Source of the DNA: Tricholoma matsutake
Taxonomy: Eukaryota; Basidiomycota; Agaricomycetes; Agaricales; Tricholomataceae
Assembly: GCA_026075535.2 (NCBI GenBank)
Contig: AP026544.2
Location: 8,308,001-8,372,000, forward strand
DNA: 64,000 nt
Direction of reading: 5' to 3'
The notes beneath the pieces were generated by a model. It saw nothing but the letters and a program-made list of their open reading frames with translations, made no database searches and was not told the origin of the DNA. The position numbers and the translations under genes are program-made. This document shows, piece by piece, positions 27,801 to 54,638 of this stretch (position 1 is the first letter of the stretch; every line of letters begins with the position of its first letter).

Positions 27801-27912
27801 TCATTGAGGGCCTTCAACTTTCTGGCGGAAGGTGGCCTCACACTGAAAAGAGTTAGTGTCAATGAGCAGTGGGTTTAGGGATTGCATGCGGTTGAAGTAG
27901 TCCCAGAATGTA
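27801..27912 (-). pseudogene. gypsy-3 gag, middle part (left of element X)
   Basis: Reads TFWDYFNRMQSLNPLLIDTN. The gag N-terminal part at 54639-55105 ends ...SLTLATDD. Taking out 27911-54638 with one copy of TAC joins the two in frame through a single ACA codon. Confidence 0.8.
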
Positions 27913-28059
27913 CAACTGGTGGGACATGCGGTGATAGGTTGTCTCCTTGGCTCAAAGGCCGATTCACCATTTCGACCACATTCTAAGCACATCGGATAAC
28001 TCGCATGAGGTCCCAGAAGCAGCACAACCACTCCCGACCAAGTCTACCAAGTGCAATAT

Positions 28060-28211
28060 TGTGTCAAACATGATCGAACATCGTCGAAAATCATCGAGCA
28101 TCGAGCATCGTCAAACATTGTCAAATTATGACATTATTTTTCACAAAATATTTATGGTCAAGGTCATGGTCATACTCAAAGTCATGGTGCTGAAGTCATG
28201 GTCATGGTCAA
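28060..28211 (+). repeat. Element X left subterminal repeats
   Basis: Units ATCGAACATCGTCGAAAATC / ATCGAGCATCGTC, then ATTTTTCACAAAATA, then GGTCATGGTCA-type hexamer repeats. The same components occur at 53400-53770. Confidence 0.65.
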
Positions 28212-28964
28212 TGTTAAGACTATAGGTCTTTAACTCAGCCTCGGCTTCATGTGTTACAGTTGGAGGCTTTCCAACTGTCTCGTATCGCACTAGGAGACTT
28301 TCCTAGTGTATCAGGCTTCCTGCCTTTACTTGGGTACTTCCTCAAGTAGTCACGGCTATCCATACTCAGAGGCTTTCTGAGTAGACCGTTCGTTTGTGTA
28401 TCACAGTTGGAGGCTTTCCAACTGTCAAGTTCGGGTTATCACAGCTAGGGGCTTCCTAAGCTGTCGAGTTTGAGTGTATCACAACTAAGGGACTTCCTTA
28501 GTTGTCGAGTGTTCTGGTTGAGTCTAAGACCGTTGGTTGAATTAGGTCAAGCTGGAGAATACACAGAGTGTAGCTACAGCTTATATACTGTTCCAGGACT
28601 ATCTATCGTCCAATCAGAAGGTGAGATGCTTATCAGGTAAATATAGACAAGAACAATAGAAACAATAGGCCTCATGCCTCGCATGAGGTGTCTGATGTCA
28701 AGGAGTGCTACAGCGCAGCATATCAGAGAACAATAAGAGATAAGCCTCATGCCTAGCATGAGGCGTCCAATGTCATAGATCCAATGTCAAGGATCCAATG
28801 TCACGGACCTCATGTAAAGGGGTTGTCATACCATGATGTGTGTGGGAGTGGATTCGGGTGCATGGAGTCGCCATGCATCAAGGTGTCTCCCGTCGGAAGT
28901 GAGCCAAATCAAACAAGAAAAATGAAGTGCCCAGTCTTGCGGGTCCAGATAACAAATCGTAACA
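28212..28964 (-). repeat. gypsy-outer 3' LTR with serial hairpins
   Basis: Seven short inverted repeats with different stems but a shared G(G/A)CTT loop lie at 28256-28278, 28288-28308, 28327-28348, 28363-28383, 28403-28425, 28441-28464 and 28481-28505. Three further hairpins of other types lie at 28670-28688, 28745-28763 and 28859-28877. Confidence 0.85.
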
Positions 28965-28986
28965 TCACCCTCTCTATCTTCGAAGT
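28965..28986 (-). promoter_or_regulatory. gypsy-outer polypurine tract
   Basis: On minus, AGATAGAGAGGGTGA abuts the LTR. It resembles the gypsy-inner tract AGAGAGGGGGTGA. Confidence 0.65.
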
Positions 28987-29022
28987 CACTGACTTCGATC
29001 AAAATCTCTTTCTCCTCCCTGG

Positions 29023-29481
29023 TCAGGAGGTGGGGTGGGGTTGTGGGGTTTGAGGGAATTGGTTGGAGCGCAGTAGTGTTCCCAACTCTCTGTGTTCTCC
29101 AAGCAGGAGTCTCTTCGCCAGGCTATATCCACTCTCATCATCATAGTGGGTATTCCACTGCAGGTCGATCCATAGGGGTCTGCTCACACCCACCAGTGGC
29201 CTCATACCAGGGTGAAGCCCTGTCCGGTCGACGCAGAAGTCCTCTGGGATGTAGTCTTCCCCGTCTCGCTCTTCCTCAAAACACCACTCTTCATATTGGG
29301 TCCTCACCCAGGTGTAGTCCGCCTTCGTGCTCCTCCAGGCAAAGAGGCAACATTTGGGGCAGGTCAAGGACACCCTTCTTATCCAGTTGTCCCTTGTTAT
29401 CCAGAAGGGAATCCCATGTGGGCATACCCACGAGGGTCTGCCTGGGAGTATGTTCATCAGTGGTTGTTGGTTGATGACCAT
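29023..29481 (-). CDS. Cys-rich accessory ORF downstream of gypsy-outer pol
   Basis: An open 152-residue frame between the chromodomain and the 3' LTR, out of frame with pol. It has a compact Cys/His pattern (WVCPHGIPFWITRDN, SLTCPKCCLFAWR) that could bind zinc, then an acidic, aromatic stretch (YTWVRTQYEEWCFEEE). No stops, unlike much of pol, which hints at coding use. I do not recognise the family. It could be an extra C-terminal domain reached by frameshift, or an envelope-position accessory gene. Confidence 0.45.
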   Translation of the reverse strand: MVINQQPLMNILPGRPSWVCPHGIPFWITRDNWIRRVSLTCPKCCLFAWRSTKADYTWVRTQYEEWCFEEERDGEDYIPEDFCVDRTGLHPGMRPLVGVSRPLWIDLQWNTHYDDESGYSLAKRLLLGEHRELGTLLRSNQFPQTPQPHPTS

Positions 29482-29599
29482 TCACCCAGTCCTTGCTGGG
29501 GTTCATGGCAGGTGTAGTGTCGATGGAGGGGGGAGCATCCTGTGGTTTCTTTGATTTGGTGGGTGTTTTTGGTCTTGGTTCTGGGGGGTTCTACAGCTG

Positions 29600-29857
29600 T
29601 CATCGCTGTTTATATGCTCCAAGGATTTTCTTGGCATGTTTCAGGTTTCCCTTGGGCTCCCAGGAGTTCTCCAAGGTCGGGTATCTGACCCACTTCACTA
29701 AGAAGTGCATGGTCCTTCCTTTTTTTTTCTGTCCAATGATCGCTTCCACTTCGTACTCCGATTCACCTTCTATTAGGTCCAGTGGAGGTTCTGGCAAGTT
29801 TGGACCATGCGTCTCGGTTTCTTTATACAGGGTGAGGAGTGCCGCATGGAATACCGG
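29600..29857 (-). pseudogene. gypsy-outer pol C-terminus with chromodomain (split by gypsy-inner)
   Basis: EYEVEAIIGQKKKGR followed by HFLVKWVRYPTLENSWEP is a clear chromodomain. Just before it lies VFHAALLTLYKETE. Removing gypsy-inner and one ACCGG joins WKIHP (at 35896) to VFHAALL in frame, the normal integrase-to-chromodomain connection. Confidence 0.88.
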
Positions 29858-30283
29858 TGTAAGGGGACTAGGGGGGTGCCCTGTGTGTTTTTCCTATTTT
29901 TTATGTTCATCCCATATTTTTCTCCACCTCATTTCCTTCTATTCTTCATTTTCTATGATTTTTCCGGATTTTATTACTAATTTTCCCTTGCTATCATGTT
30001 TGTACATGTTGACACTTTTATATTTAGAGGCGGAGTACCCCTTCCGACACATACCCCTTGGTATGATGTCATTCGGCAGCCTTGATCCGCCTATCTCTGC
30101 CTTTTTCTATTTTTAGGTTATATTTGATTTTTGTCATCTTCACATATACTGGGCATCAGCAAGGGGATCCTTAGAGTTTTCTCTTTGGATTTCCCTTTGC
30201 TAGGTGCGCCCCCAATCCCTGTATTATGTAGCATAATTTTAACTTCAGATTTCCCTTTGCTAGAGGCTTAGGTTGCCCTTATA
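29858..30283 (+). repeat. gypsy-inner 5' LTR
   Basis: Starts TGTAAGGGGACTAGG and ends GGTTGCCCTTATA. The usual CA end is absent. It contains a direct repeat, TTTCCCTTTGCTAG, spaced about 60 bp apart. Confidence 0.92.
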
Positions 30284-30402
30284 GTAGAAAACTCTCCCCT
30301 AAGGCCCGAAAATCGCGAACGTGCTGCCCAAGATAGGCAGGTACGGACTGGACAACGCTTCCCAAAGCTCCACAGAGTCCCTACACACCGTTCCAGATAC
30401 TC

Positions 30403-31554
30403 TTGCCTTTATTACGCCGCCATTTTCGCCAAACGTGCTCCCTAGCGACATGGACGCATCAGAACGCATCAGAACGCTTCAACGTGCTTGAAAGCGACGT
30501 TTCCGGAATGCGCGCGCAAATCGACTCGCTTAAATCTACGATTGAAAACTTCGTTAGGACCCTCCAGGCTAACCCTACGACCAATAGTTCCCCCTTTACG
30601 ACTCCAAGCGCACCCAACAATGACGTTTTGCCAAACACATCCACTAAGGAACGTGCCCAGATCAAACTGTCCCCCCCCGCCAAATTTAATGGTGCACGTG
30701 CGCAGGGACATGCATTCCTTAATTCCTGTGAGTTATACATTAGTCTCCAGTCGCATCAATTCATCGATGAGGCTGCAAAAATTTATTGGGCCTTCACATA
30801 CATGAAATCTGAACGCGCCTATCTCTATGTGGACCGTATCCTACATCAAACTAAAGAACTCGGTTCTCTACCTTTCTCCACTTGGGGTGACTTTCGAGCT
30901 GAGTTCATACGCCACTTCTGCCCCCTCAATGAACGCCACCGAGCAGTGACACGACTTGAGTCATCCGCTTACCACCAGGGACGTCGATCTGTGGACGACT
31001 ATATCAATGAGTTCAAGGATTTGGTGGACATGGCAGGATATGGGAGTGGGTTACCAGTGGTGGTGAAGTTCCGACGGGGGCTCAACCGAGAAATTCAGGA
31101 CCAGATTGCACAGATGTTGGAAGGGCGCCCAGCGGACAATGATATCCTTGCTTGGTATGAAGCTGCTTCACTCTGTGACAAGAACCGACTCACAAATGTG
31201 GCATTTAATGCTGCATTCCATGCTCCAACTACCACTCATACACCCTACACCTTCAATCGAAGCCTTCCCTGCCCTAACCCCATTCCTGTTCATCAAACTC
31301 CCACACCAGCTGTCAATGTCCCAGTACCAATGGATGTTGATGCAGCCCGCAGCCATGCACGTAAGTTGGATCTCTGCTACCGTTGTGGGGAACCTGGACA
31401 CAGGGCTGGAGCGTGTCCCCATCATCAGGATATCTGCATGCTCACCCCTGAGGGACGAGATGAACTCCTGCAAGATTTGTTGGCGCTTGTAGATGTTGAG
31501 GAAGCGAAGGATCAAGTTGTAGAGGAGCAGGATTTTCCTATTCGCAGCGAGTGA
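30403..31554 (+). CDS. gypsy-inner gag
   Basis: The open frame covers a retrotransposon gag capsid (AKIYWAFTYMKSERAYLY, FRAEFIRHFCPLNERHRA, SVDDYINEFKDLVDMAGY) and a perfect zinc knuckle CYRCGEPGHRAGAC near the C-terminus. The true start is uncertain. The ATG at 30451 begins a plausible leader (MDASERIRTLQRA) in another frame, next to a GCATCAGAAC duplication, so a small indel probably altered the N-terminus. It ends 4 bp inside the pol frame. Confidence 0.9.
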   Translation: MPLLRRHFRQTCSLATWTHQNASERFNVLESDVSGMRAQIDSLKSTIENFVRTLQANPTTNSSPFTTPSAPNNDVLPNTSTKERAQIKLSPPAKFNGARAQGHAFLNSCELYISLQSHQFIDEAAKIYWAFTYMKSERAYLYVDRILHQTKELGSLPFSTWGDFRAEFIRHFCPLNERHRAVTRLESSAYHQGRRSVDDYINEFKDLVDMAGYGSGLPVVVKFRRGLNREIQDQIAQMLEGRPADNDILAWYEAASLCDKNRLTNVAFNAAFHAPTTTHTPYTFNRSLPCPNPIPVHQTPTPAVNVPVPMDVDAARSHARKLDLCYRCGEPGHRAGACPHHQDICMLTPEGRDELLQDLLALVDVEEAKDQVVEEQDFPIRSE

Positions 31555-34500
31555 ATCGTACGCCCTCACTGCCTGTCCATAACCGCTTTGAAGTCTTGTC
31601 AGTTGAATCCCCAGAGAATGAATCCATTTCTGTGACTGCTCCCCTCTCTGACCCTTTGAAGTTGGCTAAAGACGTACCTGCTCTCCCCATCTCTCCTTCT
31701 ACTCCACGTCCCAAAATTAAATCATGGGAGCGTAAACTACCACGCAAGTATATTGTGGCATCCACTCCCTCTGCACATTCCTTAAATCTAGCCATCGAAC
31801 TGCAGACGACCAACACTGGACAGATACTTGGTGTCTCTGCGCTCCTGGACTCTGGTGCGACTGGTCTCTTCATCGATTCCCATCTGGTACAACAACATTG
31901 TCTAAATACTCGCTCACTCTCACGTCCGATACCTGTATATAATGTGGATGGATCCCCAAATGAAGCTGGTGCCATCCGAGAGGTTGCAGACCTGGTTCTC
32001 CGTTACAAAGATCATAGTGAGCGTGCCCTTTTTGCTGTCACTCAATTAGGAAAGCAAAAGGCGATTTTGGGATATCCATGGCTTCGAGACCATAACCCAG
32101 AGGTCGACTGGCGCACTGGGGAGGTTACCATGAGCCGATGTCCATCCCGCTGTCGGACGTGTTTCACAGAAGCCAGGCAAAAACGTCGTGGACAGAAGGC
32201 GGCAATACGACGAACTCAGAAGTGTTGTGCTGGACCCCTGCCTATACCTGAAGTGGAATTGGAAGGGGTTCCTGATCTAATGCCGGACTCAGATGATGAT
32301 GATGAGGACCCAGAGGAAGTGGAGGAGGGTGATCAGATCTTCTACACTGCGATTCGCTCATCGCATGAGGTGTGTGCCACATCGAACATATCCCAACGCC
32401 TCGCCGAGGCCTTCCACAAAAACAACGCTGCTAAATCCTCTACTAACTCCTTACTCCCTCATCTCCATGAGTTTGAAGACATGTTCTCCAAGGAGTCATT
32501 CGACTCTCTTCCTGCGCATAAGCCATGGGATCACGCGATCAAACTCACCCCCGGCACAACCCCTTCATCCTGCAAGGTCTATCCTCTCTCTCCGGAAGAA
32601 CAATGGCAGCTTGACCAGTTCATCGATGAGCACCTGGCCTCTGGACGTATTCGACCATCGAAGTCACCCATGGCCTCTCCCTTTTTCTTTGTCAAGAAGA
32701 AGGATGGCTCACTTTGACCGGTTCAAGACTACAGAAGACTCAACAACATCACGGTCAAAAATCGCTACCCACTACCCCTCATCTCCGAACTCGTAAACCA
32801 GCTCCGTGGAGCCCGATACTTCACCAAGCTCGATGTCCGTTGGGGCTATAATAATGTGAGGATAAAGGAGGGAGATGAGTGGAAGGCAGCCTTTCGTACC
32901 AACCGTGGTCTTTTTGAACCGCTTGTCATGTTCTTTGGCCTTACTAATAGCCCTGCCACCTTTCAGACCATGATGAACGACATCTTCCATGACCTCATCC
33001 TTGAAGGTGTTGTCTGCATCTATCTCGACGACATCCTCATCTTCACTCGCACGGTTGAAGAGCACCATCGCATCACGCGCCTCGTCCTAGAGCGACTTCG
33101 ACGGTACAAACTCTACCTTCGTCAGGACAAATGCGAGTTTGAAAGGACCAAGATCGAGTACCTCGGCCTGATTATCTCGGAGGGTCAAGTGGAGATGGAT
33201 CCTATCAAGGTAAATGGGGTCACAGCTTGGCCGACGCCCACGAACAAGAAGGAGGTGCAGTCTTTCCTGGGCTTCATCAATTTTTATCAGTGTTTTATCA
33301 AGGATTTCTCACATCATGCACGACCGCTGTTCGACTTGACAGGAAAGGAGGCATGGAGGTGGGATAATGCACAACAGGAGGCATTCGAAAAGCTTAAGGA
33401 GATGGTCACTTCCGCTCCAATCCTTACCTTTGCTGACGATTCGGGTCCTTTTTGTGTAGAAGCCGACAGTTCTGACTTTGCGACGGGCGCTGTGTTGTCT
33501 CAGCAGTCTCCGGAGGACCAGAAGTGGCATCCTGTTGCATTCTACTCCAAAAGCCTTAGTGCTGTAGAGAGAAACTACGAGATCCATGACAAGGAGATGT
33601 TGGCGATAATGCGTGCGCTTGAGGAGTGGCGACACTTCCTCGAGGGTGCCCAACACAAGGTGGAAATTTGGACAGATCACAAGAACCTCGAGTACTTCAT
33701 GACAGCCAAGAAATTGAACCGTCGTCAAGCTCGTTGGTCCCTGTATCTATCTAGATTCAACTTCTCCTTACACCACCGTCCGGGTCGCAGCATGGGGAAG
33801 ACCGATGCCCTATCCCGATGTGCAGACCATGGGGATGGCAGCGGTGACAACCAAAACATTGTGCTGTTGCAGCCAGACCTGTTCACCATTCGGGCACTGG
33901 AAGGCATCGTACCCCAGGGCGAGGAGCGGGACATCCTACGTGACATTCGTCGCGCAAACCATAGCGGTTTACATGAGGATGTTGTTGCCCGAGCTGTTAA
34001 AGAACTGAGGAAGGGATCGACCCTTTCCTTATGTGTGGCAGTGTGGGCTGAAAAGGAGGACTTGTTGTATTTCAGGGATCGCATCTATGTTCCCAATGAC
34101 CCAGACCTTCGCCGGCGCATCATATCCCAACACCATGACTCACAGATTGCTGGCCACCCTGGACGCTGGAAGACCTTGGAGCTCACCTCATGGAACTATT
34201 GGTGGCCACAAATGTCATGGCTCATTGGTCAGTATTGTCGCACTTGTGACCTTTGCTTACGCACCAAGGTCCCTCGTTGCAAGCCTATTGGTGAGCTACA
34301 CCCTCTTCCTGTTCCAGAGAGTCGTTGGGATGTCATCAGCATTGACTTTGTGGTGGAATTGCCAGAGTCAAATGGGTTTGATGCGGTGATGTGCACAGTT
34401 GACTCAGTGGGAAAACGCGCTCAATTCATTCCCACTCACACCACTGTCAGTGCCCTAGGTGCCGCTCAACTCTACCTCCACCACGTGTGGAAATTACATG

Positions 34501-35429
34501 GACTTCCTGGTGCCTTCCTCTCGGATTGTGGCCCTCAGTTCATGGCAGAGTTCACTCATGAGCTGTACTGACTCCTGGGGATCAAACTCCTCGCTTCAAC
34601 TGCTTATCACCCACAAACTGATGGCCAGACAGAGCGAGTCAACCAGGAACTGGAGCAGTACATCTGCCTCTTTGTCAATGAATGCCAGGACGATTGGGAT
34701 GATCTCCTTCCTTTGGCCGAGTTCGGGTACAACAACCATGTCCATGCTTCCACTCAACAGACCCCTTTCCTCTTAGACACTGGACGACATCCATGCATGG
34801 GATTTGAACCTCACCAAACTCCCTCACACATCGAGACAGTGAATGAGTTCACAGAACGCATGAGGGATAGCTTGGAGGAGGCAAGGGCAGCCTTAGCAAA
34901 GGCGAAGGACGACATGGCACGATTTTACAACCAATGCCACTCCCCAACCCCTCAGTACAAGGTTGGTGATCAAGTTTATCTTGACTCCAGTGACATCTCC
35001 ACTACACGTCCATCCAAGAAACTTGCTCATCGCTTCTTGGGACCTTTCCCCATTGTCAAGTGCGTTGGAACACATGCCTATCGTCTACGCCTCCCAGCCT
35101 CCATGTCCAGACTCCATCCCATCTTCCATGTCGTCAAATTGCTTCCAGCTCCCCCAGATCTGTTCCTGGGACGCCATTCACACCCACCACCACCACCTAC
35201 AGTGATCGAGGGAGAACCCCAATATGAAGTCGAGTCAATCTTGGACAGCCGTTTGCGTCAAGGAAAACTCCAGTATTTGGTACATTGGAAGGGTTATGGG
35301 TATGAGGAGAACTCATGGGTCAAAGAGTCTGACGTAAATGCCCCTCGGTTAATCAAGGAATTCCACCGACGGCACACTGCTGCACCGCGTTGCATTCAAG
35401 TCACGGACTTTGGTCGTATACGATTTTGA
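31551..35429 (+). pseudogene. gypsy-inner pol: protease, RT, RNase H, integrase, chromodomain (two stops)
   Basis: Domains in order: protease LLDSGATGLFIDS (about 31850); RT with SPFFFVKKKDGSL, catalytic YLDDILIF and LGLIISEGQ; RNase H from EADSSDFATGAVLSQQ; integrase zinc ligands (HHDSQIAGHPGRW...CRTCDLC), core IDFVVELP, SDCGPQF and QTDGQTERVNQE; chromodomain YEVESILDSRLRQGK and LVHWKGYGYEENSW. TGA at 32715 follows DGSL, where homologues have Arg, and TGA at 34569 follows HELY, also at an Arg position. SDRGPQF has become SDCGPQF. All three are single C-to-T changes, so the copy was lost recently. Confidence 0.94.
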
Positions 35430-35448
35430 ATGCATCGGGGCGATGCAT

Positions 35449-35464
35449 CTTAGAGAGGGGGTGA
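35449..35464 (+). promoter_or_regulatory. gypsy-inner polypurine tract
   Basis: AGAGAGGGGGTGA directly precedes the 3' LTR. Confidence 0.75.
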
Positions 35465-35890
35465 TGTAAGGGGACTAGGGGGGTGCCCTGTGTGTTTTTC
35501 CTATTTTTTATGTTTGTCCCATATTTTTCCCCACCTCATTTCCTTCTATTCTTCATTTTCTATGATTTTTCCGGATTTTATTACTAATTTTCCCTTGCTA
35601 TCATGTTTGTACATGTTGACACTTTTATATTTAGAGGCGGAGTACCCCTTCTGACACATACCCCTTGGTATGATGTCATTCGGCAGCCTTGATCCGCCTA
35701 TCTCTGCCTTTTTCTATTTTTAGGTTATATTTGATTTTTGTCATCTTCACATATACTGGGCATCAGCAAGGGGATCCTTAGAGTTTTCTCTTTGGATTTC
35801 CCTTTGCTAGGTGCGCCCCCAATCCCTGTATTATGTAGCATAATTTTAACTTCGGATTTCCCTTTGCTAGAGGCTTAGGTTGCCCTTATA
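35465..35890 (+). repeat. gypsy-inner 3' LTR
   Basis: About 98.8% identical to the 5' LTR by my count (5 of 426). Confidence 0.92.
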
Positions 35891-36822
35891 ACCGGGTGTA
35901 TTTTCCATTGGTTTGGTAGCTTCAGTTGGTAGGAGAGGGGGCTTAGAACCTTCTCGATGGAGAATGGTCCTTCTCTTTTGGGTGTGAGTTTCTTTGTCGC
36001 ATGCGTCGTTTTGAGGTTTTTTGCTTCTAGCCACACCCTGTCTCCTTCTTTGAATGGCGTGAAGTGCCGTGTAGTTCTTTCTGCCATCAGCTGTCTGGCC
36101 AACTTGTGAGTTGCCTTTGCTTCATCTCGGGCTCGTTGCAACGCGACTATTCGTTTCTCTATAGCCGGTATGTTTGTTTTCAGGTATGGGAGTGGGATCG
36201 CCTTTGGTTCATAGCCCATCATCAGGTAGAACGGGGAGCTTTTCTGGGTGGAGTGCATCCTTTGGTTGTGCATGAACTCTGCTGTTGGAAGGAAGTGCTT
36301 CCATTTCTCTTGGTTGTTCGAGCAGAAGATCCACAGGTAGACTTCTACTTCCTGATTCACTCGTTCTGTTTCTCCATTGGTCTGGGGGTGGTATGCCATA
36401 CTCATTGCCAGCTTGATTCTGAGCAATCTTTCTAATTCTTGGAATAGCTGCGAGGCGAATCTGGGGTCCCTGTCCAATATTATCTTGTCTGGAAGGCCGA
36501 ACCGTTTGTAGACGTAATCCAGATAGAGGGTTGCTGCTCCCAGTGCATCGATTGTTTTCTTGCAAGGGATGAAAATTACCCCCTTCGTAAGCCCATGGTC
36601 TACCACGACCATGAGTGCATCATAACCGTCGGACTCTGGTAGGTCAGTTATGAAATCAGTCATCACCATTGCAAATGGCCTTGTCGCTTCGGATTTGATT
36701 GGTTGTAGGGGCGGTGTCGTTGGGTGGGTGTTGACTTTCATCTGCTGGCATGTAGCACATCCAGCGACATAGTTCTTGATGTACGTCATCATTCCTGGCC
36801 ACCAGTAGTCCCTTCTAACCAT
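35891..36822 (-). CDS. gypsy-outer integrase
   Basis: A long uninterrupted stretch with the C-C zinc pair CATCQQMKV, core MTDFITDLPESDGYDA, ILDRDPRFASQLF and HPQTNGETERVNQE (all three acidic positions present), then the GDRVWLEAKNLK linker to WKIHP, where gypsy-inner interrupts. The upstream frame breaks at 36823. Confidence 0.92.
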
Positions 36823-36921
36823 TTCGGTTGTCTGCCATTGTCCTGGGTGTCCACTGGTTACCCCTTCATGGTATTTCTGTACCAGCTTCTTTCGTATGTC
36901 CCCACTGTCAGGGACGTAGCA

Positions 36922-38756: not shown

Positions 38757-38911
38757 GGGTTCTCCTCAGATGTAGGCGATTAGTAGTTTGTTGTCCGTGA
38801 TCCCTTGCATGGGTGTCTCCTCTGGTTGTCCTGTTGTCTGTTCCATTGCCTGTTCCATTGCCTGTTCGTGGTTTGCCTGTGCTGGGTTTTCCTTCCCAGT
38901 GTCTTCTTCTA

Positions 38912-41110: not shown

Positions 41111-41142
41111 TCTTCGTCCTGTGGCCCAATGGGCTCCACATC

Positions 41143-43175: not shown

Positions 43176-43974
43176 TGTTAAGACTATAGGTCTTTAACTC
43201 AGCCTCAGCTTTGTGTGTGACAGTTGGAGGCTTTCCAACTGTCTCGTATCACACTAGGAGACTTTCCTAGTGTATCGGGCTTCCTGCCTTTACTTGGGTA
43301 CTTCCTCAAGTAGTCACGGCTATCCGTACTCAGAGGCTTTCTGAGTAGACCATTCATTCATGTATCACAGTTGGAGGCTTTCCAACTGTCAAGTTCGGGT
43401 TATCACAGCTAGGGGCTTCCTAAGCTGTCGAGTTCAAGTGTATCACAACTAAGGGACTTCCTTAGTTGTTGAGTGTTCTGGTTGAGTCTAAGACCATTGG
43501 TTGAATTAGGTCAAGCTGGAGAATACACAGAGTGTAGCTACAGCTTATATACTGTTCCAGAACTATCTATCATCCAATCAGAAGGTGAGATGCTTATCAG
43601 GTAAATATAGACAAGAACAATAGAAACAATAGGCCTCATGCCTCGCATGAGGCATCCGATGTCAAGGAGTGCTGTGGCGCAGCATATCAGAGAACAATAA
43701 GAGATAAGCCTCATGCCTAGCATGAGGCATCCAATGTCACAGATCCGATGTCAAGGATCCGATGTCAAGGACATGCTGTGGCACAGCATGTCAATCGTGA
43801 GGGTCCGATGTCACGGACCTCATGTAAAGGGGTTGTCGTACCACAATGTGTGTGGGAGTGGATTTGGGTGCATGGAGTCGCCATGCGTCAAGGTGTCTCC
43901 CGTCGGAAGTGAGCCGAATTGAACAAGAAAAATGAAGTGCCTGGTCTTGCAGGTCCAGATAACAAATCGTAACA
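43176..43974 (-). repeat. gypsy-outer 5' LTR with serial hairpins
   Basis: 799 bp. The seven hairpins of the 3' LTR recur between about 43218 and 43469. An additional 46-bp segment includes another hairpin (ATGCTGTGGCACAGCAT). Confidence 0.88.
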
Positions 43975-44367
43975 GTCAAGGTCATGATACACGTTCAGGT
44001 AATGTTTACAGTTGTTGTCTAAGTTTTTTGCTAATGGCAATCATGGTCATACACTCTACTCGTCGAATTGTACACTGTGTAGGTGCATGAAGATCTGCCC
44101 AGTGCTCAGATCCACCCCCTGTTATTCACCCCAGCCAATGCCTGGGCCACTACCCAAGAACCAAACTCCCAAACAATGGGGCTTAGATCCGACTACACTA
44201 CACCCAATTTGGATATTCTGTGCTTGGCACTACAGTGTTATAAATTCTCGAGACGATTCAGAAAGTACAGCTACCTCATCCAACTTGAATTTCATTCATT
44301 TATCTCTTCTTTATCTGCTCTTAATACCCAACTTCGACATTCATTTCCATCAAGTATACTCTATGCG

Positions 44368-47300
44368 ATGGATCTTTCGCATCTGACTCCCGAGCAGATT
44401 GCTCAACTATGAGCATTACTTCTTCCAGAAACTCCTGCTCCTGCTTCCTCCAGCACTGATGTGACTTCTGCTCCATCTCCATTCTCCTCATCGCTACCTC
44501 CTCCAACACAGGCTCCTGCAGCAGTACCACAGCAGCAGTCTGTTTGTTTTCTGGATCCAGGCTCACTAACGACTCAAACAGCTGCAGCAACTATACCCCA
44601 CCTGATTACACAGTTATATCAGAGCCATCAACATTCTGCATCTGGACATCCCTCTTCAGGTCACCCGAGTGCACCATCTTTGTTCCAGCCATTCCTCGGA
44701 ATCAGTAGTCTTGGAATTGGTCTTGCTGCAGGACATGCCAACCAGGCCTGGCTTGCATCAGCTGCTACTACCCTACCTCGACAGCCTACTTTGAGCCATC
44801 GTACCAGTCGCTCTACTCGACCTTGGGGTCCTGCTATACAGCCTCCTTCAATTCCTGTCAAGCTTGCTCCAGGTTCTGCTTTACACCTCTGATCGTGTTT
44901 TGTGTCAGGCACTCCAGAACCTGTTGTTCAGCTGACTGTCAAAGTACATCCCCCTGCAGTGTGTTTTCTATTATCCTATCTGTCTTGTGCAGCAGCTGAC
45001 GTAACCCTAGGAACATGGTCATCGATATATTCTCTTCCGATTCCTGAAGGAGTCGTTCGATGCCTGGCTGGAAAGGTATAATCGTTTATATCAGTGGGAT
45101 GTTGCTACCAGCACACTCGTTTGTTTGTTGCCTCTACAAGTCAAGGATGGGATGGAATCAGGCCCTTCTTCATACAGGTTTGCACCTGTTCACCGTTTAT
45201 CTGGTCAGGAAGGACTACCATTGGAGGTACTTGGGGTGTTGAGCCGAGGACAGCCTTCTGGCAGTGCAAATCAGGTTTATATGAGGCCACATCCTCTGGA
45301 TCACAATGCTACCATCACACAGCTTGTTGCTGATAGACATCGTTTCACTCCACAGTCCTGTATCAATGGTGATCAAATTATCCTTCATCTTGGTATGTCA
45401 GCATTCGAGTAACTGGCATTCATTCTAACATAATATTGGTGTTCCAGCTGTCTCACTCCATCTTCTCACAGTTCTTACAGATAACTATCGGCACCAGTGC
45501 CTTGGAAGGAGGCTAGTAGCAGCATTTCCTTGTGATAGTTACTCAATGGCTGCAGATCCAGACAGCTTTGAGGATGACTGTCAGTCTGATGATGGTATCC
45601 TGTCTGGCAATGATGGTGATGATAGTGATGATTCAGAGGAAGTACAGTCTCTTCTCACCTCTATCCAAAGTACTCGAACTGAGCAAAGGATTCGCAATGC
45701 TATTGGTAATGAACCTGCTGCAGTAAGCTTCTGCCTTTTACTATTGAATACAGCTCATCGTTCTCTGATATATAGTCGCTTCCTCCTGCATCTGTGACCC
45801 CCCACTATAAATGCTGTTGCAACTGCTGAACCCTCATCGCTTTGAGTGGTGCCCCGAGACCAATCGCTAACTGATATTATAAGTTTTCTTCCACCACCAA
45901 TTTGGTTATCGCCCTGGTCAGCTCCACCAGCACCCAATGCAAATTTGTACACAGTGGACAACTTCAATTCAAAGGTTTATCATGAAGCAGCCAGACCAAA
46001 TTTCTCTGCAAGGCTGCGAGTTCATGGGAGGAATGTAACTGAAATGGCATCTATTCTTGATGCAAAACTAGCTGTAGCTGTTGGTCAGAATGATTTCAGT
46101 GAGGTGCTATCTCCTGCACGAGATTTCCAGATGTGAGTTTTATTCTTTATTTTGAAAATGTATAATTCTGACTTCTACATATACTAGTATGGGTGAAAAT
46201 GGAACACTCCTTTCAACTGGCCCTGGAATCGAACATGAAGTCATCTTCACAGCCTTTGAATCTTATCGGCGTGAGCATTCACAATGGTTTGAAACTCATG
46301 AGGATGGTATGGCAACGGTAAAAATTGTTTACCCTATGTCTGCATCCCGTTTCATCCCACAGCAGCGATTACTTTCATTAACCAAGCTTGGTGCACTCTG
46401 TGCTCTTCTTCTTATCATTGGACAGTTTCCCTCTCCTCTCGATCCCTGCATTCTCCAGTATGCTGTTCATGGCATGAATATTCATTCTCTTCATCCAGCA
46501 TTTGTTGGTGAATGGCATCCAGAAACAAGGGCTAAAGTTCTCCAGTGGCTTGATATTGGCTCCAATGGTGATATCACCCCATTCCAGAACCATCTCACAG
46601 CATATAATGCTCTAGAAGTAAGCCTGTTTATTGCTGTAAGCTCTCTGTTTATATTTCTAATTGTTCTGGTTGCTATAGATATCATTGCTCCAGATTCGAG
46701 ACGAGGGAGCACACAAGGCTTTTGCTGATGACATGTTATATCACATGATTTTTGGCCCCGAACCCCCTTACCACCCTGAGTGGAAGGCATTTTACAGAGG
46801 ATTTTCATTATCTTGTCGCAATGGCTTTAGTTTTCTTTCGGTAAGGATTGATGCACTTTTTATTACTTCTCTTATACTGTAATCCAGGTTACAAGAGGAT
46901 TTGCAGGTGGCTCCGAGACATTTTTCAGTATGAGGTGGACCTCGAGTATCAGGGGCTATGACTCTGTTGAGCCATATCTCTCAGTAACTCCACCATCACT
47001 TTCATTTTCTGAAACTATGACTATTGTAGGAAGAAATAATATGACAATTCTTCAGCGACTGGAAAAATTTCTGCAGGGTTCTGGTCTTCCCTGCCCCGAG
47101 CTTTTTAAAGCTGCCCAGGGGGGTTTCAGTTCTATCATTGATCTTTCACAGGTATTGGTTGCTTCTTTTCGGGCCAGGGTGTTTGTTTGGGTGATCACAG
47201 GCTCGCCTTTCATTGATCCAGGAACCGATGATAGGATTAGTGTAAGTCACTAGCCACTCGCCCTTTATACCACTAATGAATACTCTTACAATCCAGATTA

Positions 47301-47551
47301 TTATTTCAGAGGAAAACAACTTTTATTATGCTGAAAGCAGCGACCAGGCAAGGATCATGATGAGCCAGGGAAGAATTAGCTTTCAGACCTGCTCTCGCAC
47401 TGCCAGGTTTCCTGCAAAATATATTACTGGGCTCGCACAAGCTTCATACCCACCTACACCAGAGGAGGAACCTGCCTCATTTGACGATGCTTTTGACCAC
47501 TGGCTGCTATGCGAGCTGCTGAATGCTATCGGTGGCCACTTGATACTCTGA
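44368..47551 (+). pseudogene. Element X gene 1: HECT-like E3 ligase-type protein
   Basis: Start ATG 44368 (MDLSHLTPEQIAQL), with a TGA at 44410 where Arg is likely (CGA). Pro/Ser-rich N-terminus to 44892; an exon near 45010-45410 (SFDAWLERYNRLYQWD). C-terminal exons by GT/AG and open frame: about 45470-45722, 45776-46132, 46188-46617, 46679-46840, 46888-47241, 47297-47551. The last two resemble a HECT C-lobe: RVFVWVITGSPFID (compare FLxFVTGSxxxP) and ISFQTCSRTARFPAKYI (compare TCFNxLDLPxY), with the catalytic Cys position kept. A homopolymer C6 near 45800 shifts the frame. HECT ligases pass ubiquitin through that Cys. The match is remote and from memory. Its neighbour 0.6 kb downstream is the integrase gene. 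Confidence 0.5.
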
Positions 47552-47903
47552 TATACACTTCAAGTCTTTAGCCCACATTACTCTATTGGGTAGTACTTCT
47601 GGCTGTCTCGTTCCATTCATTGCCTAGATCCCAGAATTATACACTCATTTAATTTTCTTTTCTTTTCCTGCTTTTTCTCCCCCTAGCTACTCCCTCCTTC
47701 TATAGTTTATCTCATTTAATAGTACAATTTCTGCTAGCTTTCATTATACTTATCAAATTATGATAATAAAACCTTGCTGCTAAATTTGCAAAATGATATG
47801 AGTAGTAAAACATAATATACTGCAGGAAAACAGCCACTTACCTGGGAATTACAGACTCGTTTTACAGATTTCAGTTTTACAGACTTTTCACAACTTTGCC
47901 AGT

Positions 47904-47987
47904 AGCAGGGATCAAACTTTGTATCTAGTGTAATGCCCAACAGATGTTAACCTTGAACAGTGTTAACCAGCTAAGAACCACTAGACT
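47904..47987 (-). repeat. tRNA-like block between element X genes 1 and 2
   Basis: On minus, TAGTCTAGTGGTTCTTAGC (A box) and AGTTTGATCCCTGC (B box). Spacing is longer than in most tRNAs and no cloverleaf is evident. Confidence 0.4.
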
Positions 47988-48167
47988 AAGAGACAACTTA
48001 ATGTATGCAAATATAAGTCTTCATAACCACTATTCATCTGAGATGGAACTGCTGGGTAGAGTCACATGTAATGCTGTGTGGCAGTGGCATGCTTAATATA
48101 CTTATACCGAACAGCTCTAGGATGTTTATTCCCACCCACCCCCTGCTATAGTCTGCCTTGTATCTGT

Positions 48168-50104
48168 ATGTCTGCATTCTCTGGGCCAGAGCCTGAACCA
48201 CACCAGAATGACCTGGAGCTCTTATCAGCATTTCGTACACATTACTACCGATTTGAGCAGGCTGTACATGAAGCAACAGCTGTTTTGGCAGATTCAAATG
48301 TGTTGGCTCATTTAGGTGATGACTTGGATGAGTACTCTAATCTTGTAACCCAGGTATGTGCTGCTGTACTGCTATATTCTACTCAGATTTTTCTTAGTCT
48401 ACTTCAGCATGCAGCCATTTTTGATCCTGCAGAACTTGCCATACTGCAGGCAAATCTCATAGCCATGAGGAGTGATATACACCAGCAGCATGAGCATGCT
48501 CTGGATTCCTCACACCATGGGCATCCTGTACTTACTGAACAGGTTTATACTGGAAGAAGGGGAAGGCCAGCAATTCACATTGACCCAGATTTTCTTCAAT
48601 GGGCATATTCACTCTGTTCAACCTCCAGTATTGGCAGATTTCTCCATGTCAGCAGGCAGAGAGTCCGCAGTGCACTATTAGAGCATGGAATTGCAGTTCC
48701 ACAGGCAGATCCATTTATACATAGCAGGGAGGAGCCTGATGGTACTGATGATATCAGAGCAGATAGCACAGCTCAGACAGTTACAGCAGATAGCCTGCTT
48801 AATCCTGATCTTCCTCTGCCACCAGCCTTTCCACCAGACATTCCTGCACCAGCTAGACAGCACACAGTATCATTTACTGCACCCCTTTCTACTCTCTCTG
48901 ATGCTGAGCTGGATGAACTTATCTTGCACTTGCAGAGACATTACTGCAGGGCAGGAGTGACAATGCTTCATGGAATGCTACTACATCTGGGACACCGCAT
49001 TCCATGGGAGCGGATACGTCAGTCATTACTGAGAATTGATCCTGTTCAGTGGGTGTTTGAAAGAATCTGGATCCGATGCTGCACATATTCAGTCCCAGGA
49101 CCCAATTCTCTGTGGCATCATTATGGGCAGCATGGTAAAGGAAAGCAGTATTGGTTTATTTGGTTTCTAACAATTAATATCATTTTTAGGTCTCATTTGC
49201 TGGGGAATTGTTATCCATGGCTTTATTGATGGCTATTCCCGGTTAATTACTGGATTACAGGCAAGCAACAATAATACAGGCCAGACTGTCCTTGATCTCT
49301 TTTTGCATGCTGCTGCTGTATATGGCATTCCTTCTTGGCTCCAGGGTGATCATGGTGTTGAAAATATTCTGGTTGCAGCATGGATGGAGGCATATAGTGG
49401 AGTTCAGAGAGGTTCATATATTTGGGGCAGGTGTGTAATATAACAGAGCAACTAAACAATACTGACCAATTGTTTGCAGAAGTGTCCACAACATCTGCAT
49501 AGAATGGCTATGGGTAGATATCACAGCACAGCTTGGGTCATCATGGGCAGAAGTTTTTACTGCATTGGAGATTCATCATGGGCTCAATATTAACAACTCC
49601 TACCACATCTGGCTTCTCCACTTTCTATTCCTACCAACAATCAACCAGCAGCTATCATTTTTTGCTGAATCATGGAATCAACACCGCATACAGGTTCGGA
49701 ATGGTCCCAACTGCTCACCTGCAGATATGTTTGGATTTGACATGTTTGTGCATGGCATACGAGGGGCACAGCTTCCACCTGCAGATAATATGACTGCGGA
49801 AGAGCTGGAGGTTTTTGGTATTGATTGGCCTGCTTTCAGAGAGGAGCAGCTACTTCAATCTTTACAGGAGAATGCCCCAGCCCAGGAGGAAGCAACTTCA
49901 TGGGTTGGCCAGACTGGACCACCAGCTCATCTCAATGAGGTTCCACTTGATGCTCCAAATGTAGATATGCCTGTAGATCAGCTTCAGCTATTTCAGAATT
50001 CTCTTGAACAGTGGATTGGTATAGCTGGTGGTAATGCAACAGCTGAGTCACTATGGGTATATAGTCTAGCACTTGCAAGGCAGATTTATGGTAATAACTT
50101 TTAA
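48168..50104 (+). CDS. Element X gene 2: rve/DDE integrase-type transposase
   Basis: Exons 48168-48353, 48408-49134, 49190-49430 and 49480-50104 join into one open frame of about 590 residues (three introns of 49-55 bp). The N-terminal half has a DNA-binding-like segment (GRPAIHIDPDFLQWAY, IGRFLHVSRQRVRSALL, helix-turn-helix type). The core reads GPNSLWHHYGQHG, HGFIDGYSRLITGL, WLQGDHGVENILVA and SVHNICIEWLWVDI. The second Asp (GDHG) and Glu (CIEW), 34 residues apart, fit a D-D-34/35-E integrase. By family memory the first Asp should be in LWHHDG, which is Tyr here, and CIEW should be RIER. The C-terminal part (NQHRIQVRNGPNCSPADM) matches mushroom integrase-core proteins. Intact frame but possibly catalytically dead. 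Confidence 0.8.
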
Positions 50105-50212
50105 TTATAATGCATACATATTATAGCCTGCAGCCAAATTTTCACTAATAGATGTTTGAAATTGCTGATAAAGCTTTCATGAGAACAAATACCAGAAAAC
50201 TAATTTCATGTA

Positions 50213-51938
50213 TCAGTCTGTAACATTACCCTCACCAGCCCCTGCCCCTGACTCAACCTTTATACCCTCTACAGCAATCTTGAATGCTTCAGTGATGTGA
50301 CCTGAGAAGGTGATTGTACACATGCAGTTATGTGCACCACAAAGACAGGTAGTTCCATGAGGATACTCAGGCTGGAATGCCATAAGTGTGCCAGTAGCCT
50401 GCTGCACCACAACACCGAGAGTAATATCAACAAAATTTCCCCCACCTTCAACTGGCCAAGCAGTCTATTCTCTCCAGAACTGTTGATATGAGAGCAAGAG
50501 GCACCCTGTTTCCCATCTACAACCCGACCTACACAGTATGACAGTCCATAGCCTGCCCAGCACTTGTCAGTATGAGCCCATCTGAAATGTGAAAATAGGT
50601 CAGAAAACTGTAACATAAATAGTATGTAGGAAAATACCCCATACGCTACATAATCTTGAGAGAAATAACCCTCAGGTGGAGCTCTCTCAAAAGTAGGAAA
50701 TGAATATGTCTTCCCCTCTAGATCTAGACAGTATCCACACCCTAAGTTTATAAGTAACCAGATGCCCTGCAGACAAGTATAGATCTTACCTTCAGGAACA
50801 TTTCTTGTAGCAATCCTTGGCATTCCACTTTTCTTCAATGAATCTTCAAGATCATCCATAACTTCACTTGGCATTGATGCTTTGGCCAGTGACCAGCAAA
50901 GAGTCATGAGAGCAATTGCATCCTCATCTCGCTCAACCATTGTAGCCTTATCAATCTTCCGGTTGAAACTTTTTGCCAATCCTCATACTCTGGCATGTCG
51001 TGGACCTGCATTCCAGCCAAGCTGCACCATTGAACCATCATGATTTGGCTACTGGACTGGTAAGAAATAATTTAAAAAAATATGGGTGGAACATACTCGA
51101 ACATTGCACCTATCATAGCAGGCCTGTGCAACAACTCCAGATGCCCATTCATACAAAGCTCCAGAGTGCTCAGAAGAGTGTGCAATGCCATGGAGAACAA
51201 CAAGTTCCACCTTAACTGATCCTGCAGGAACAATATCATGAATGTTGTCCCAGTACGACCTGTCCAACTTACCCTTGGCAGGGGATGAAACAAAAATAAC
51301 TGATTCATCAGGTGCAACAATGTAAAACCCAGCCTCTGCATTCACAACAGCATCCCCAGGATAGCATGCTGTATCTGCCAGGACTGACCTAAGCTTGATT
51401 GGACTGGTGTCACTCCGCTTTCGCCACACTATTTTGATACCAACCTCTGAGTTAGAATCTAGAAGAGCCTGTAGTGAGACAGGTTTCTGGTTCAATCCAA
51501 GGGAATGTATCTTACACAGAAAACCACTTAGCAGCTGATATAGAGATGCAGTCATAGTAACTCACAAAACTTCGCTTGTCATGATGGGAAGCATCTGCTC
51601 ATGCTATCTTTTGAAGATTCTTGAGTTTGTTCAAGAAGATTTTCAGAGCAATGTATAGTGGTTTTTCCCAATGATCTTTTGCTAGTCCTAGGCCAATGTT
51701 AAGTAACCCCTCAATCTGACAAGATGTAGGACAGTGTACCAATGAGATCAGTATGTACCAGAGACTGAAAATGACTTACAGTACTGATATTTGGATCAAT
51801 CTGTTTAACCTGCTGGATGATATCTGTGATACCAGGATCACCAGGATCAGCTTTTTGGAGAACTGTAATCATGCTAGGCTGATCTAACAGCAACCAAACT
51901 GAGGTCAAGCAATAGAAGGGAATTACTGCAAAAGACAA
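50213..51938 (-). pseudogene. Element X gene 3: probable 2-oxoglutarate/Fe(II) dioxygenase (TET/JBP-like)
   Basis: Exons on minus include about 51938-51780, 51555-51097, 51051-50790, 50741-50645 and 50581-50213. The C-terminal half has WAHTDKCWAGYG (HxD metal motif), GGNFVDITLGVVVQ and GTLMAFQPEYPHGTT (distal His) followed by AHNCMCTITFSGHI. This H-x-D...G-x-L...H-G...T-x-T-F pattern is the double-stranded beta-helix core of 2OG/Fe(II) oxygenases, and the GG-F...LG...G-L spacing recalls TET/JBP enzymes. The 2OG-binding Arg expected about 11 residues after the His is Cys (TGC, perhaps from CGC). A 1-base shift at a C-run near 50440 and stops at 51052 and near 50985 break it. It converges with gene 2 (109 bp apart). 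The assignment rests on motifs only. Confidence 0.45.
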
Positions 51939-52199
51939 TCAGAAATAAGCTGCCAACATACTTGCACCATTCTTTTTATTCCGTTTTTTACCCTTGTTCA
52001 TTGATAGAGGTGATGGTTGTAGAGTTAAGCTTATCAGTGAAAACACCACAATGAGAAAACACCGACATCCCAAAGTGTCTGCACACATTCTTCATTAGAT
52101 TTTCTGAAGAATACCAATGTATATACAGGAGAAAGAATGTCCTAAGTAATACAAATTTTAAATCATCAATATCCACCCCACAGCCATTCTCCCAATCCT

Positions 52200-53250
52200 C
52201 ACTTATTGATCTCAAGTTGCCATCGGTGCTCTCCCCTGTCACCATGTGTCTCCCCCACCATGCATCTCCCTTGCCCTCTACCCCCTTGACCATCCATCCC
52301 CTCTTCTCCCACCTTTTCCACCCTGCGAGCAGTCGCTCGCAGCGGTGGTAGTGAGTGCTGGCAACATTCTCCCTCACGCATTCACAGCCCGCTGCGCAGG
52401 CACTCATAGGTAGTGTTGCATTGTTCTTCGGGTGGTCTAAAACTGGAAAATGGAAGAGAACAGTTAGTTAGTCGAATCAAACATGAAATTAAAAAATTAA
52501 AAAACTTACTGTGGCCAGATTTCAGTGTTGCTGGGTTGCTGGGTGCTGTCCTCATCCCCTAGTGCTCACCAAGCTCGTAGCACCTGCAATCCACCCTGCG
52601 AGCAGTGGCTCGCAGGCATGAGTGCAGGTGCTGTGCAAACCGCTGTTGGTGAGGCCCTGGTGCTTCGTCTGGACCGGCCCCTTGGTCCTCACATCTCGTT
52701 GCACCCACCGCCGTCGTGTGGCCATCTCCACTTGCTCCTGCCATCGCAGCATAGCCGCACCATGAGTGGACACCCATCCACCCGCTATGTACCCCATGAG
52801 CAGTTGCTCGGGGGCTTGGAGGCAGGCAGTGTGGTCCTCTTCACCTCACTGCTCACCCTTCTCCACCCTGCAAGCAGCTGCTCATAGGCGTGGCGGGGGG
52901 TGTTGTGTCGTTGGAGTCAACTGCTGGTACTGGTGCTGGTGTTCCTAGCGGATGTGGTGTGGGTAAGCAGTCAGCATAGATGTGGTGGGTGAGCGAGAGT
53001 GTGGGGGGTGCATACCTGGTGGTACCCTAATGCAAGGGCTTCCTGGCCCCTCCCTGCGTGGTCGCCATTTCGTGCTTGAAAGCATTGATGTTAGCCTAAA
53101 AAATGAAGGAAAACAGTTAGATGGTCCATAAAACAAAGAAACGAAACATACCTGTGGCCCCAATGATGATCAACATCATTTGAGTGCGAGAGAGCCCGTA
53201 TGCAACTGCAGTGGCGTTACCAGCTGTTGTTGCCATTGCCGTAGACATTG
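52200..53250 (-). repeat. Family Y gene-like segment (copy 2) inside element X
   Basis: Stem-loops of the GAGCAGT-GCTC type at 52323-52342, 52595-52616, 52792-52813 and 52866-52890. On minus, two intron-like stretches occur: one ending at the exon near 52440 (GTAAGT...GACTAACTAACTG...TTCCAG, about 52441-52512) and one at about 53098-53152 (GTATGT...CATCTAACTG...TTTTTTAG). The frames between encode LRATARRV(D/E). No full protein could be built. Confidence 0.5.
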
Positions 53251-53399
53251 CTGTTGCTGTTCACAGGGAGGTGTGGGTGGTGAGGTGAGATAGATATAAA
53301 TCAACAATATAAATCAACATAGTTATATACAGAAATTCCCACAGCACCTTTTTCAGACATTATGGACGTTTTGTTGAACATGACTCAAGTCGGCAAGGT

Positions 53400-53770
53400 T
53401 GTTTGTTTATCATGGTGATCATGAAAATGGATCATGACTGTGACCGTGACTTTGACTGTGACCATGACCAACAACCATGATCTTGATAAGGACATGTGAC
53501 CAAGGTACATGCTCTCCAAAACACTCAAAACCACCTGCTACGACTTTGAAACCACCTGCTACGACTTCGCCAAGTATTATTTTGTGAAAAATCCTTTCAT
53601 ATCGAATATCGTATCGAACACAATCGAGCATCATTGAACGTGGTCGAGCATCATCGAACGCAATCGAGCATCATATCAAACACAATTGAACATCGTCAAA
53701 CATCGTCAAACATCGTCAAGCATCATAGAATGCAGTCGAGCATCATCAAACATCGTCGATCGATATCGAG
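53400..53770 (-). repeat. Element X right subterminal repeats
   Basis: GACTGTGACCATGACC-type repeats at 53430-53475, TATTTTGTGAAAAAT at 53578-53592, and about ten CATCGTC/CAATCGAGCATCAT units at 53600-53760. Components match the left side (28060-28211). Confidence 0.65.
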
Positions 53771-53929
53771 AGACTGCGAGTGACATTGGGCACCACATTT
53801 GTTATCTAAATGGTGGAATACCATGCGCCAGGAAGGATTCCAACTCGTGCCCAAACCTGCTGATAGTAGGTTAGCCTCGTTCCAAGTCCCAATCGCGCAC
53901 AGAACCCGCTGGACAAATTTCTGTGAGAC

Positions 53930-54638
53930 TTAGCACAATTTCTACACAAAGGACAGTCCCCTTTCAGTTCCATACCCTATATTACTCTTTCATCATATGA
54001 TATATATCCTTCTTGTTCAGATTCCAGTCTCCTTTTTGGCCTTGTGCCTTAACTCATATCTTTTGCCTCATGTTCTACACATGTTTCTTATTCCATTTTT
54101 AGGAAGTTTCTTTAAAACATATAAAACTCTGTAGTATCTACTGGGAAAAAAAAAGAAATCGTCTTCACCTATCGTCTTGTATACAGTTCTAAGCATCCGA
54201 TCAACTTTCTAAAACAATCTAAGTCTCTACGGGTTTTCTCGATCGATGAGAAACCTCTGCGATCATCGCGTCCTCGATCCTCCCTCGATCCTCTCGTCAT
54301 TAGCACTAGCAACCCTTCCAACACTTCATAGCCATTTGCTGCACCCTTCGTATACTATTGACCTATCAAAAGGTCTCCAGAATTCACACATCGACCATCG
54401 ACGATAAACTCGTTCGCCATTGATCTCATCGATCACCCTCGATACTGATTGATACTCGATTGGACTGCGCCAAATGCCTTTGTCTCTCATAGCACTACCT
54501 TCACGACTAGTACCAACTGGTCATCTTCCCATCAGTTGGGCCACGAACATTCAGAATGACTCGCAACCTTCCTCTGACTCGTCACAAATATCATTGATTG
54601 CCTCATCGGCAGTTTAGGTGGTTTTCCCGGGTTGAGTA
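53930..54638. repeat. Element X right terminal region
   Basis: Ends GCAACCTTCCTCTGACTCG...GGTTTTCCCGGGTTGAGTA. A diverged version of this whole ~700-bp region is found at 55500-56272 (same GCCTCATGT, TTTTTAG, AACATATA and terminal blocks). Confidence 0.6.

What the first reader, a model, noticed from the sequence alone, without database searches (positions are those of the whole stretch)
27911..54638. An ~11-kb transposon combining an rve integrase, a HECT-like protein and a probable TET/JBP-like oxygenase
Seen: three multi-exon genes side by side (44368-47551 plus, 48168-50104 plus, 51938-50213 minus) inside a unit whose removal with 3 bp (TAC) rejoins the gypsy-3 gag frame. The unit has matching TACAAC/TACTCAAC ends and shared subterminal repeats. 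Known: fungal TET/JBP genes have been reported with KDZ transposons, not, to my knowledge, with an rve integrase. Inference: the HECT-like and oxygenase genes travel with the integrase and may counter host silencing.
Basis: partly seen in the sequence, partly recalled or inferred. Interest (0 to 1): 0.87.

Follow-up and report, generated by a model that had tools for sequence, protein, structure and literature searches.

The report
Mushroom transposon with TET-like and HECT-like genes
A worn-out jumping gene in a matsutake-like mushroom genome carries, besides its own integrase, a relative of TET DNA-demethylating enzymes and a HECT-type ubiquitin-ligase-like gene; it sits inside a retrotransposon remnant whose ends had been mistaken for its own.

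Summary
The three genes are real. Gene 2 is a PF24764 (rva_4) integrase. Gene 3 belongs to a family whose predicted fold matches TET2, CMD1, NgTET1 and CcTet. Gene 1 is HECT-like: the model is poor, but the best 21 structural rows are all HECT ligases and the catalytic-type Cys is invariant. The claimed ends are wrong. 27932..54644 are the ends of an LTR, apparently solo, of a high-copy retrotransposon family (4-bp TSD GCGG/GTGG; 15 empty gypsy-3 sites). The transposon lies inside it: 28127..53601, 9.7 kb net of a nested retrotransposon, termini TATGA..TCATA, 6-bp flanks TCAAAT/TCGAAT, as in the IS3EU/GingerRoot superfamily. In the same 161-Mb genome (size fits Tricholoma matsutake), 17 of 34 HECT-like loci lie within 15 kb of one of 36 integrase loci (0.24 expected), 15 of 17 in the window's layout; a TET-like gene is that near an integrase at 2 of 4 TET loci. 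So HECT plus integrase looks like the core and TET a capture by one sublineage. TET-carrying IS3EU elements were published in 2025 from rusts and a truffle; my searches showed no HECT partner and no Agaricomycete case. The window copy is a fossil.

The parts
27932..54644 (+). Outer insertion in gypsy-3 gag: an LTR, apparently solo (TGATAGGTTGTC...TATCATCA), of a high-copy retrotransposon family, split by the transposon; LTR pieces 27932-28126 and 53602-54644
27928..27931 (+). 4-bp TSD of the LTR, left copy (GCGG)
54645..54648 (+). 4-bp TSD of the LTR, right copy (GTGG; differs at a CpG)
28127..53601 (+). The IS3EU/GingerRoot-like DNA transposon (TATGA...TCATA), 9,707 bp net of the nested retrotransposon
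28121..28126 (+). 6-bp TSD, left copy (TCAAAT)
53602..53607 (+). 6-bp TSD, right copy (TCGAAT; 5 of 6 equal, differs at a CpG)
28127..28159 (+). Left terminal inverted repeat (TATGACATTATTTTTCACAAAATA...)
53569..53601 (-). Right terminal inverted repeat (TATGAAAGGATTTTTCACAAAATA...)
28212..43974 (-). LTR retrotransposon nested in the transposon, TSD GTCAA at 28207-28211 and 43975-43979; itself holds another gypsy at about 29858-35764
44368..47551 (+). Gene 1, HECT-like; C-terminal exons 45846-46132, 46188-46617, 46679-46840, 46888-47241, 47297-47551; in-frame stops near 44410 and 45843
48168..50104 (+). Gene 2, rva_4 integrase/transposase, exons 48168-48353, 48408-49134, 49190-49430, 49480-50104; WHHYG where several relatives have WHHDG
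50213..52001 (-). Gene 3, TET/JBP-like dioxygenase (HxD and distal His kept; three in-frame stops in my exon model)

Best explanation
28127..53601 is an inactivated copy of a cut-and-paste DNA transposon of IS3EU/GingerRoot type. Its rva_4 integrase (DDE) acted on TA..TA inverted ends and made 6-bp target duplications (ends and flanks shown; the reaction inferred from the family). A HECT-like ligase gene, usually upstream of and on the same strand as the integrase, is the standing partner of this transposon group in this genome (shown statistically); most likely it ubiquitinates a host or transposon protein to favour expression or transposition (inferred, target unknown). One sublineage picked up a TET/JBP-like dioxygenase, which most likely oxidised 5-methylcytosine on the element's DNA and so eased silencing (fold and metal-binding residues shown, activity inferred). 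The copy jumped into an LTR inside a gypsy-3 element and was later split by another LTR retrotransposon.
Confidence: 0.76

Rival explanations
1. The whole unit 27932-54644 is the transposon, with gypsy-LTR-like TG..CA ends and 4-bp TSD (Ginger-like), and the 1.19-kb repeats are its shortened derivatives.
For: TG..CA-type ends, 4-bp TSD, many short copies sharing both ends. The two window LTR pieces fit different subfamilies: left 78% and right 92% to one set, left 91% and right 84% to L050.
Against: The 1.19-kb unit occurs as a pair around an integrase zinc domain and gag/RT-like frames; an uninterrupted LTR with the window's left type exists (L050); inner inverted ends with 6-bp flanks exist and recur with HECT or TET elsewhere; no HHCC motif by regex.
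Confidence: 0.06
2. HECT plus integrase is the transposon; the TET-like gene is a chance neighbour or was brought in by another element (for example a KDZ transposon) nested there.
For: No TET within 15 kb at 34 of 36 integrase loci; TET genes are known cargo of KDZ elements (PMC12730594, sections read).
Against: Same order and convergent orientation of integrase and TET at C11, main stretches 84-91% identical; the same terminal motif lies 495 bp before a third TET gene at C4; TET lies inside both inverted ends in the window.
Confidence: 0.12
3. Gene 1 is not a working HECT ligase but a degenerate C-lobe-like or other protein needed for transposition.
For: No Pfam match in any of 5 homologues nor in the corrected window reading; low model confidence.
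Against: Invariant Cys in a C-lobe-like setting and HECT-only top structural rows; two homologues carry the UniRef name HECT domain-containing protein.
Confidence: 0.2

Closest known systems
TET+ IS3EU transposons (Kojima 2025, PMC12730594; abstract, sections 1, 3.2 and 4.2 and passages read)
   Same: IS3-type integrase-like transposase, TA-type ends, 6-bp TSD, a TET/JBP gene inside
   Different: Published from Pucciniales and Tuber indicum, all with an alpha-kinase gene; the rust ones end TAYGG..CCRTA. Here an Agaricomycete, a HECT-like gene instead (0 of 18 alpha-kinase matches within 15 kb of 36 integrase loci) and TATGA..TCATA ends
IS3EU/GingerRoot superfamily (Kojima and Bao 2023, PMC10045372; passages read)
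   Same: TA..TA termini, usually 6-bp TSD, no HHCC zinc motif
   Different: The passages seen mention no HECT or TET partner
KDZ (Kyakuja, Dileera, Zisupton) and Plavaka TET+ elements (PMC12730594)
   Same: Transposon-borne TET/JBP in fungi, several in mushrooms
   Different: Other transposases; Kyakuja CA..TG ends with 7-bp TSD, Zisupton 8-bp TSD, TET+ Plavaka CATCA..TGATG with 2-3 bp TSD
Ginger1/Ginger2 (PMC2836005; passages read)
   Same: Integrase-like transposase in a DNA transposon
   Different: TGTNR termini, 4-5 bp TSD, H2C2 zinc finger, none seen here

Membership tests
IS3EU/GingerRoot | TA..TA termini | tested here: met
   TATGA..TCATA in the window, TATGA..TTATA in C8; a related integrase subfamily has a ...CCCATA end in three copies with different flanks
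IS3EU/GingerRoot | 6-bp TSD | tested here: inconclusive
   Window 5 of 6 with the mismatch at a CpG; C8 4 of 6. Two copies only, neither perfect, ends chosen after inspection
IS3EU/GingerRoot | DDE integrase core without HHCC motif | tested here: met
   PF24764 and weak PF00665; regex for HHCC empty; the window copy itself has Tyr for the first Asp
IS3EU/GingerRoot | Transposase falls in the IS3EU/GingerRoot clade | not testable with these tools
   No named IS3EU reference sequences were at hand
TET+ IS3EU as published | Alpha-kinase companion gene | tested here: not met
   0 of 18 PF02816 matches within 15 kb of 36 integrase loci; both lists are lower bounds
TET/JBP dioxygenases | TET-type double-stranded beta-helix fold | tested here: met
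   Model of homologue P0002, pLDDT 89.2; best 16 VIA rows all TET2/CMD1/NgTET1/CcTet
TET/JBP dioxygenases | HxD and distal His iron ligands | tested here: met
   24 of 24 members that have the region, 3 of 27 gapped; kept in the window reading
TET/JBP dioxygenases | Recognisable by sequence profile | tested here: not met
   A1 profile finds no TET chain in the PDB sequences; PF20515 only weakly (0.11) in 1 of 27 members
TET/JBP dioxygenases | Oxidation of a DNA base | not testable with these tools
   Needs enzyme assays
Kojima types AG, PU, PE | Position in the TET/JBP tree | not tested
   Reference sequences not at hand; the A1 profile does not reach CcTet, an AG relative
HECT E3 ligases | C-lobe fold with catalytic Cys | tested here: inconclusive
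HECT E3 ligases | PF00632 over its cut-off | tested here: not met
Ginger1/Ginger2 | TGTNR termini and 4-5 bp TSD of the element | tested here: not met
   Inner element has TATGA termini and 6-bp flanks
KDZ Kyakuja / Zisupton | CA..TG ends and 7-bp TSD / 8-bp TSD | tested here: not met

The most novel reading that the evidence does not exclude
Agaricomycete genomes hold a lineage of IS3EU-like DNA transposons whose core is an integrase plus a HECT-type ubiquitin ligase, one branch of which acquired a sequence-divergent TET/JBP enzyme: one mobile element with both a ubiquitin-system and a DNA-demethylation counter-defence.
Probability: 0.5. Interest if true: 0.68.

Novelty: new variant of a known kind. 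Interest (0 to 1): 0.52.

Why it matters
TET-carrying transposons are a natural test of whether mobile DNA fights cytosine methylation with its own enzyme. This adds a transposon lineage that the 2025 survey does not list for mushrooms, a TET family nearly invisible to sequence profiles but clear by fold, and a HECT-like partner gene linked to the integrase at many loci, which points to the ubiquitin system as a second front. The correction of the ends shows how a nested LTR can pass for transposon termini.

Tried and rejected
An early view that the related integrase loci lacked a HECT gene rested on flanks of about 8 kb and was overturned, which places HECT-like genes 9.5-13.9 kb upstream at three of them (C2:12983238, C3:9575569, C4:536795). 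Alpha-kinase as the partner: 0 of 18.

Unexplained: the two window LTR pieces fit different subfamilies best (left 91% and right 84% to L050; left 78% and right 92% to the common type), so the outer insertion may be a recombinant LTR or the remains of a longer element rather than a plain solo LTR. The LTR pieces show no CpG depletion (1.13).

Led nowhere: profile search with the HECT alignment returned only its own first member; hhalign to three HECT domains, E 0.13; PDB sequence searches with gene 1 and with alignments A1 and A3 gave no relevant hit; paper searches 8, 25 and 128 empty; others listed nothing in point beyond the papers cited. Co-occurrence in other fungi could not be tested: no fungal contig collection is held besides this genome.
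Full report
What the window is. It is G000:C7:8308001-8372000 of a genome of 161,040,721 bases in 13 contigs. The published Tricholoma matsutake assembly has 13 sequences and 161.0 Mb (PMC10211490, abstract seen), so this is very probably matsutake (inference).

The outer unit. A 1,187-bp insertion in another locus (C4) matches the window's right part 54644-53735 at 87% and its left part 28033-27932 at 78%. Searching the genome with the right part gave 40 scored places (of 1605 first-look candidates), the 39 besides the window at 88-93% identity. With the left part, the 39 places besides the window all match from base 27932 and fade after 163-195 bases (1214 candidates, 40 scored; 20 further short matches fall in the repeat array). 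Six fetched copies are all free-standing 1.19-kb units. Of the six, one has identical 4-bp flanks, three differ by one CpG-type transition, two do not match. Two such units 9.15 kb apart, 93% identical, enclose an integrase zinc domain (PF17921, 5.9e-14) and frames that look by eye like gag and RT, for which Pfam gave nothing over its cut-offs. I read them as LTRs of a Ty3/gypsy-like family, and 27932..54644 as such an LTR with TSD GCGG/GTGG. Joined gypsy-3 flanks matched 16 other places, 15 of them across the junction.

One point remains open: the two LTR pieces do not fit one subfamily equally well (left 78% and right 92% to the common type; left 91% and right 84% to L050). A recombinant LTR or the rest of a longer element is possible; the inner boundaries do not depend on this.

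The inner element. L050 is an uninterrupted LTR of the left piece's subfamily; L047 and L049 run across the junction too but differ further right. So 28127-53601 is extra. Its ends are TATGACATTATTTTTCACAAAATA and, inverted, TATGAAAGGATTTTTCACAAAATA, flanked by TCAAAT and TCGAAT. The pattern TATRANNNNATTTTTCACAA occurs five times in 161 Mb; its backward-read control occurs once on one strand and never on the other. With one mismatch the control exceeds the pattern (67 and 76 against 10 and 9), so only exact matches carry weight. Besides the window ends there is an inverted pair at C8:1141532 and 1163481 (flanks equal at 4 of 6) and one site at C4:3759709. Beside the right end of the C8 pair lie gene 1 stretches of 297 bp (88%) and 841 bp (81%); 10 of its 22 kb could be read, and no integrase or TET match was listed there. 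The C4 site lies 495 bp before the first matched exon of a TET-like gene. Kojima and Bao (PMC10045372, passages read) give TA..TA termini and usually 6-bp TSD for IS3EU, and mostly TA..TA with 6-bp TSD for GingerRoot.

Gene 2. PF24764 rva_4, E 1.5e-59; PF00665 rve below its cut-off. Relatives show WHHDG at C11, C7_4759000 and C3, WHHNG at C4_890000 and C2, then GDHGxEN and HNxxIExLW; the window copy has WHHYG. No HHCC motif by regex; 34 residues between the second Asp and the Glu. Protein search of the genome gave 91 matches, 36 loci after clustering at 5 kb.

Linkage. Gene 1 protein search: 74 matches, 34 loci. 17 of 34 lie within 15 kb of an integrase locus; random placement gives 0.24. In 15 of 17 HECT is upstream on the same strand, as in the window; one is downstream (C1), one opposite (C11). 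18 of 36 integrase loci have HECT within 15 kb. These counts include the window, and first-look limits make the locus lists lower bounds. TET: 17 matches, 4 loci; 2 of 4 (window, C11) have an integrase and a HECT-like gene within 15 kb. At C11 the order integrase-TET and their convergent orientation are kept (main stretches 84-91% identical), with 11.3 kb between them, and only the front part of gene 1 is seen, in the other orientation.

Mechanism. Shown: ends, flanks, gene content, linkage, TET fold. Inferred: integrase-type cut and paste; TET-like oxidation of methylated cytosines on element DNA; HECT-mediated ubiquitination of an unknown target. CpG is depleted in genes 2 and 3 (observed/expected 0.12 and 0.15; whole window 0.37), but not in the LTR pieces around the element (1.13). 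Three of the five imperfect solo-LTR flanks and both window TSDs differ at CpG, which fits deamination of methylated CpG (inference). The window copy cannot be active as read: stops in genes 1 and 3, altered first catalytic residue in gene 2, nested retrotransposon.

Literature. Kojima 2025 lists 11 TET+ lineages; in Agaricomycotina Kyakuja, Zisupton, EnSpm, Plavaka and Helitron2; IS3EU in rusts and Tuber indicum, with alpha-kinase. Among the rows listed by searches (10 of 5,948 papers; 2 of 2; 12 of 5,994; 8 of 324; 12 of 74), and in one search (none), I saw no HECT-carrying transposon. Subscription papers, including the 2014 PNAS paper on fungal TET/JBP (not held), were not seen, so priority is not established. 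That animal genomes may also carry HECT genes beside such integrases is a recalled lead, not tested.

Mended on checking: the 6-bp TSD and the HECT fold are now marked inconclusive in the membership test, and confidence went from 0.78 to 0.76, because no TSD is perfect and the LTR pieces are of mixed type.

Noticed in passing
window 28212-43974: Nested LTR retrotransposon (TSD GTCAA) inside the transposon, itself holding a gypsy with near-identical repeats at 29858-30157 and 35465-35764 (99%); with the outer LTR and gypsy-3 this makes five nested layers.
   Followed up: partly
window 27932-28126 and 53602-54644: The two LTR pieces around the transposon fit different subfamilies best (left 91% and right 84% to L050, left 78% and right 92% to the common type).
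   Followed up: partly
window 23242-23457 and 56485-56700: 95% identical direct repeat that may mark the LTRs of gypsy-3.
   Followed up: no
window 56278-55618 (minus): Two stretches about 69% similar to parts of the 1.19-kb LTR family, the first starting TGATAGTACTCAACC, inside the gypsy-3 leader: perhaps an older related LTR.
   Followed up: no
L051/L052 (G000:C8:1141532-1163481): Second element with both inverted ends, 21.9 kb, with HECT remnants beside the right end; the middle 12.4 kb could not be fetched.
   Followed up: partly
L038 (G000:C4:3759709 onward): TET-like gene behind a matching end motif; the nearest integrase match listed is 107 kb away: perhaps a non-autonomous TET carrier.
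   Followed up: partly
L009/L010 (G000:C11:8540650-8544413) and G000:C5:2118322-2162810: Gene 1 lies divergent to the integrase at these two close copies, unlike most other loci; at C5 the pieces are spread over more than 40 kb.
   Followed up: partly
window 48168-52001: CpG observed/expected 0.12-0.15 in genes 2 and 3 against 1.13 in the LTR pieces around the element.
   Followed up: partly
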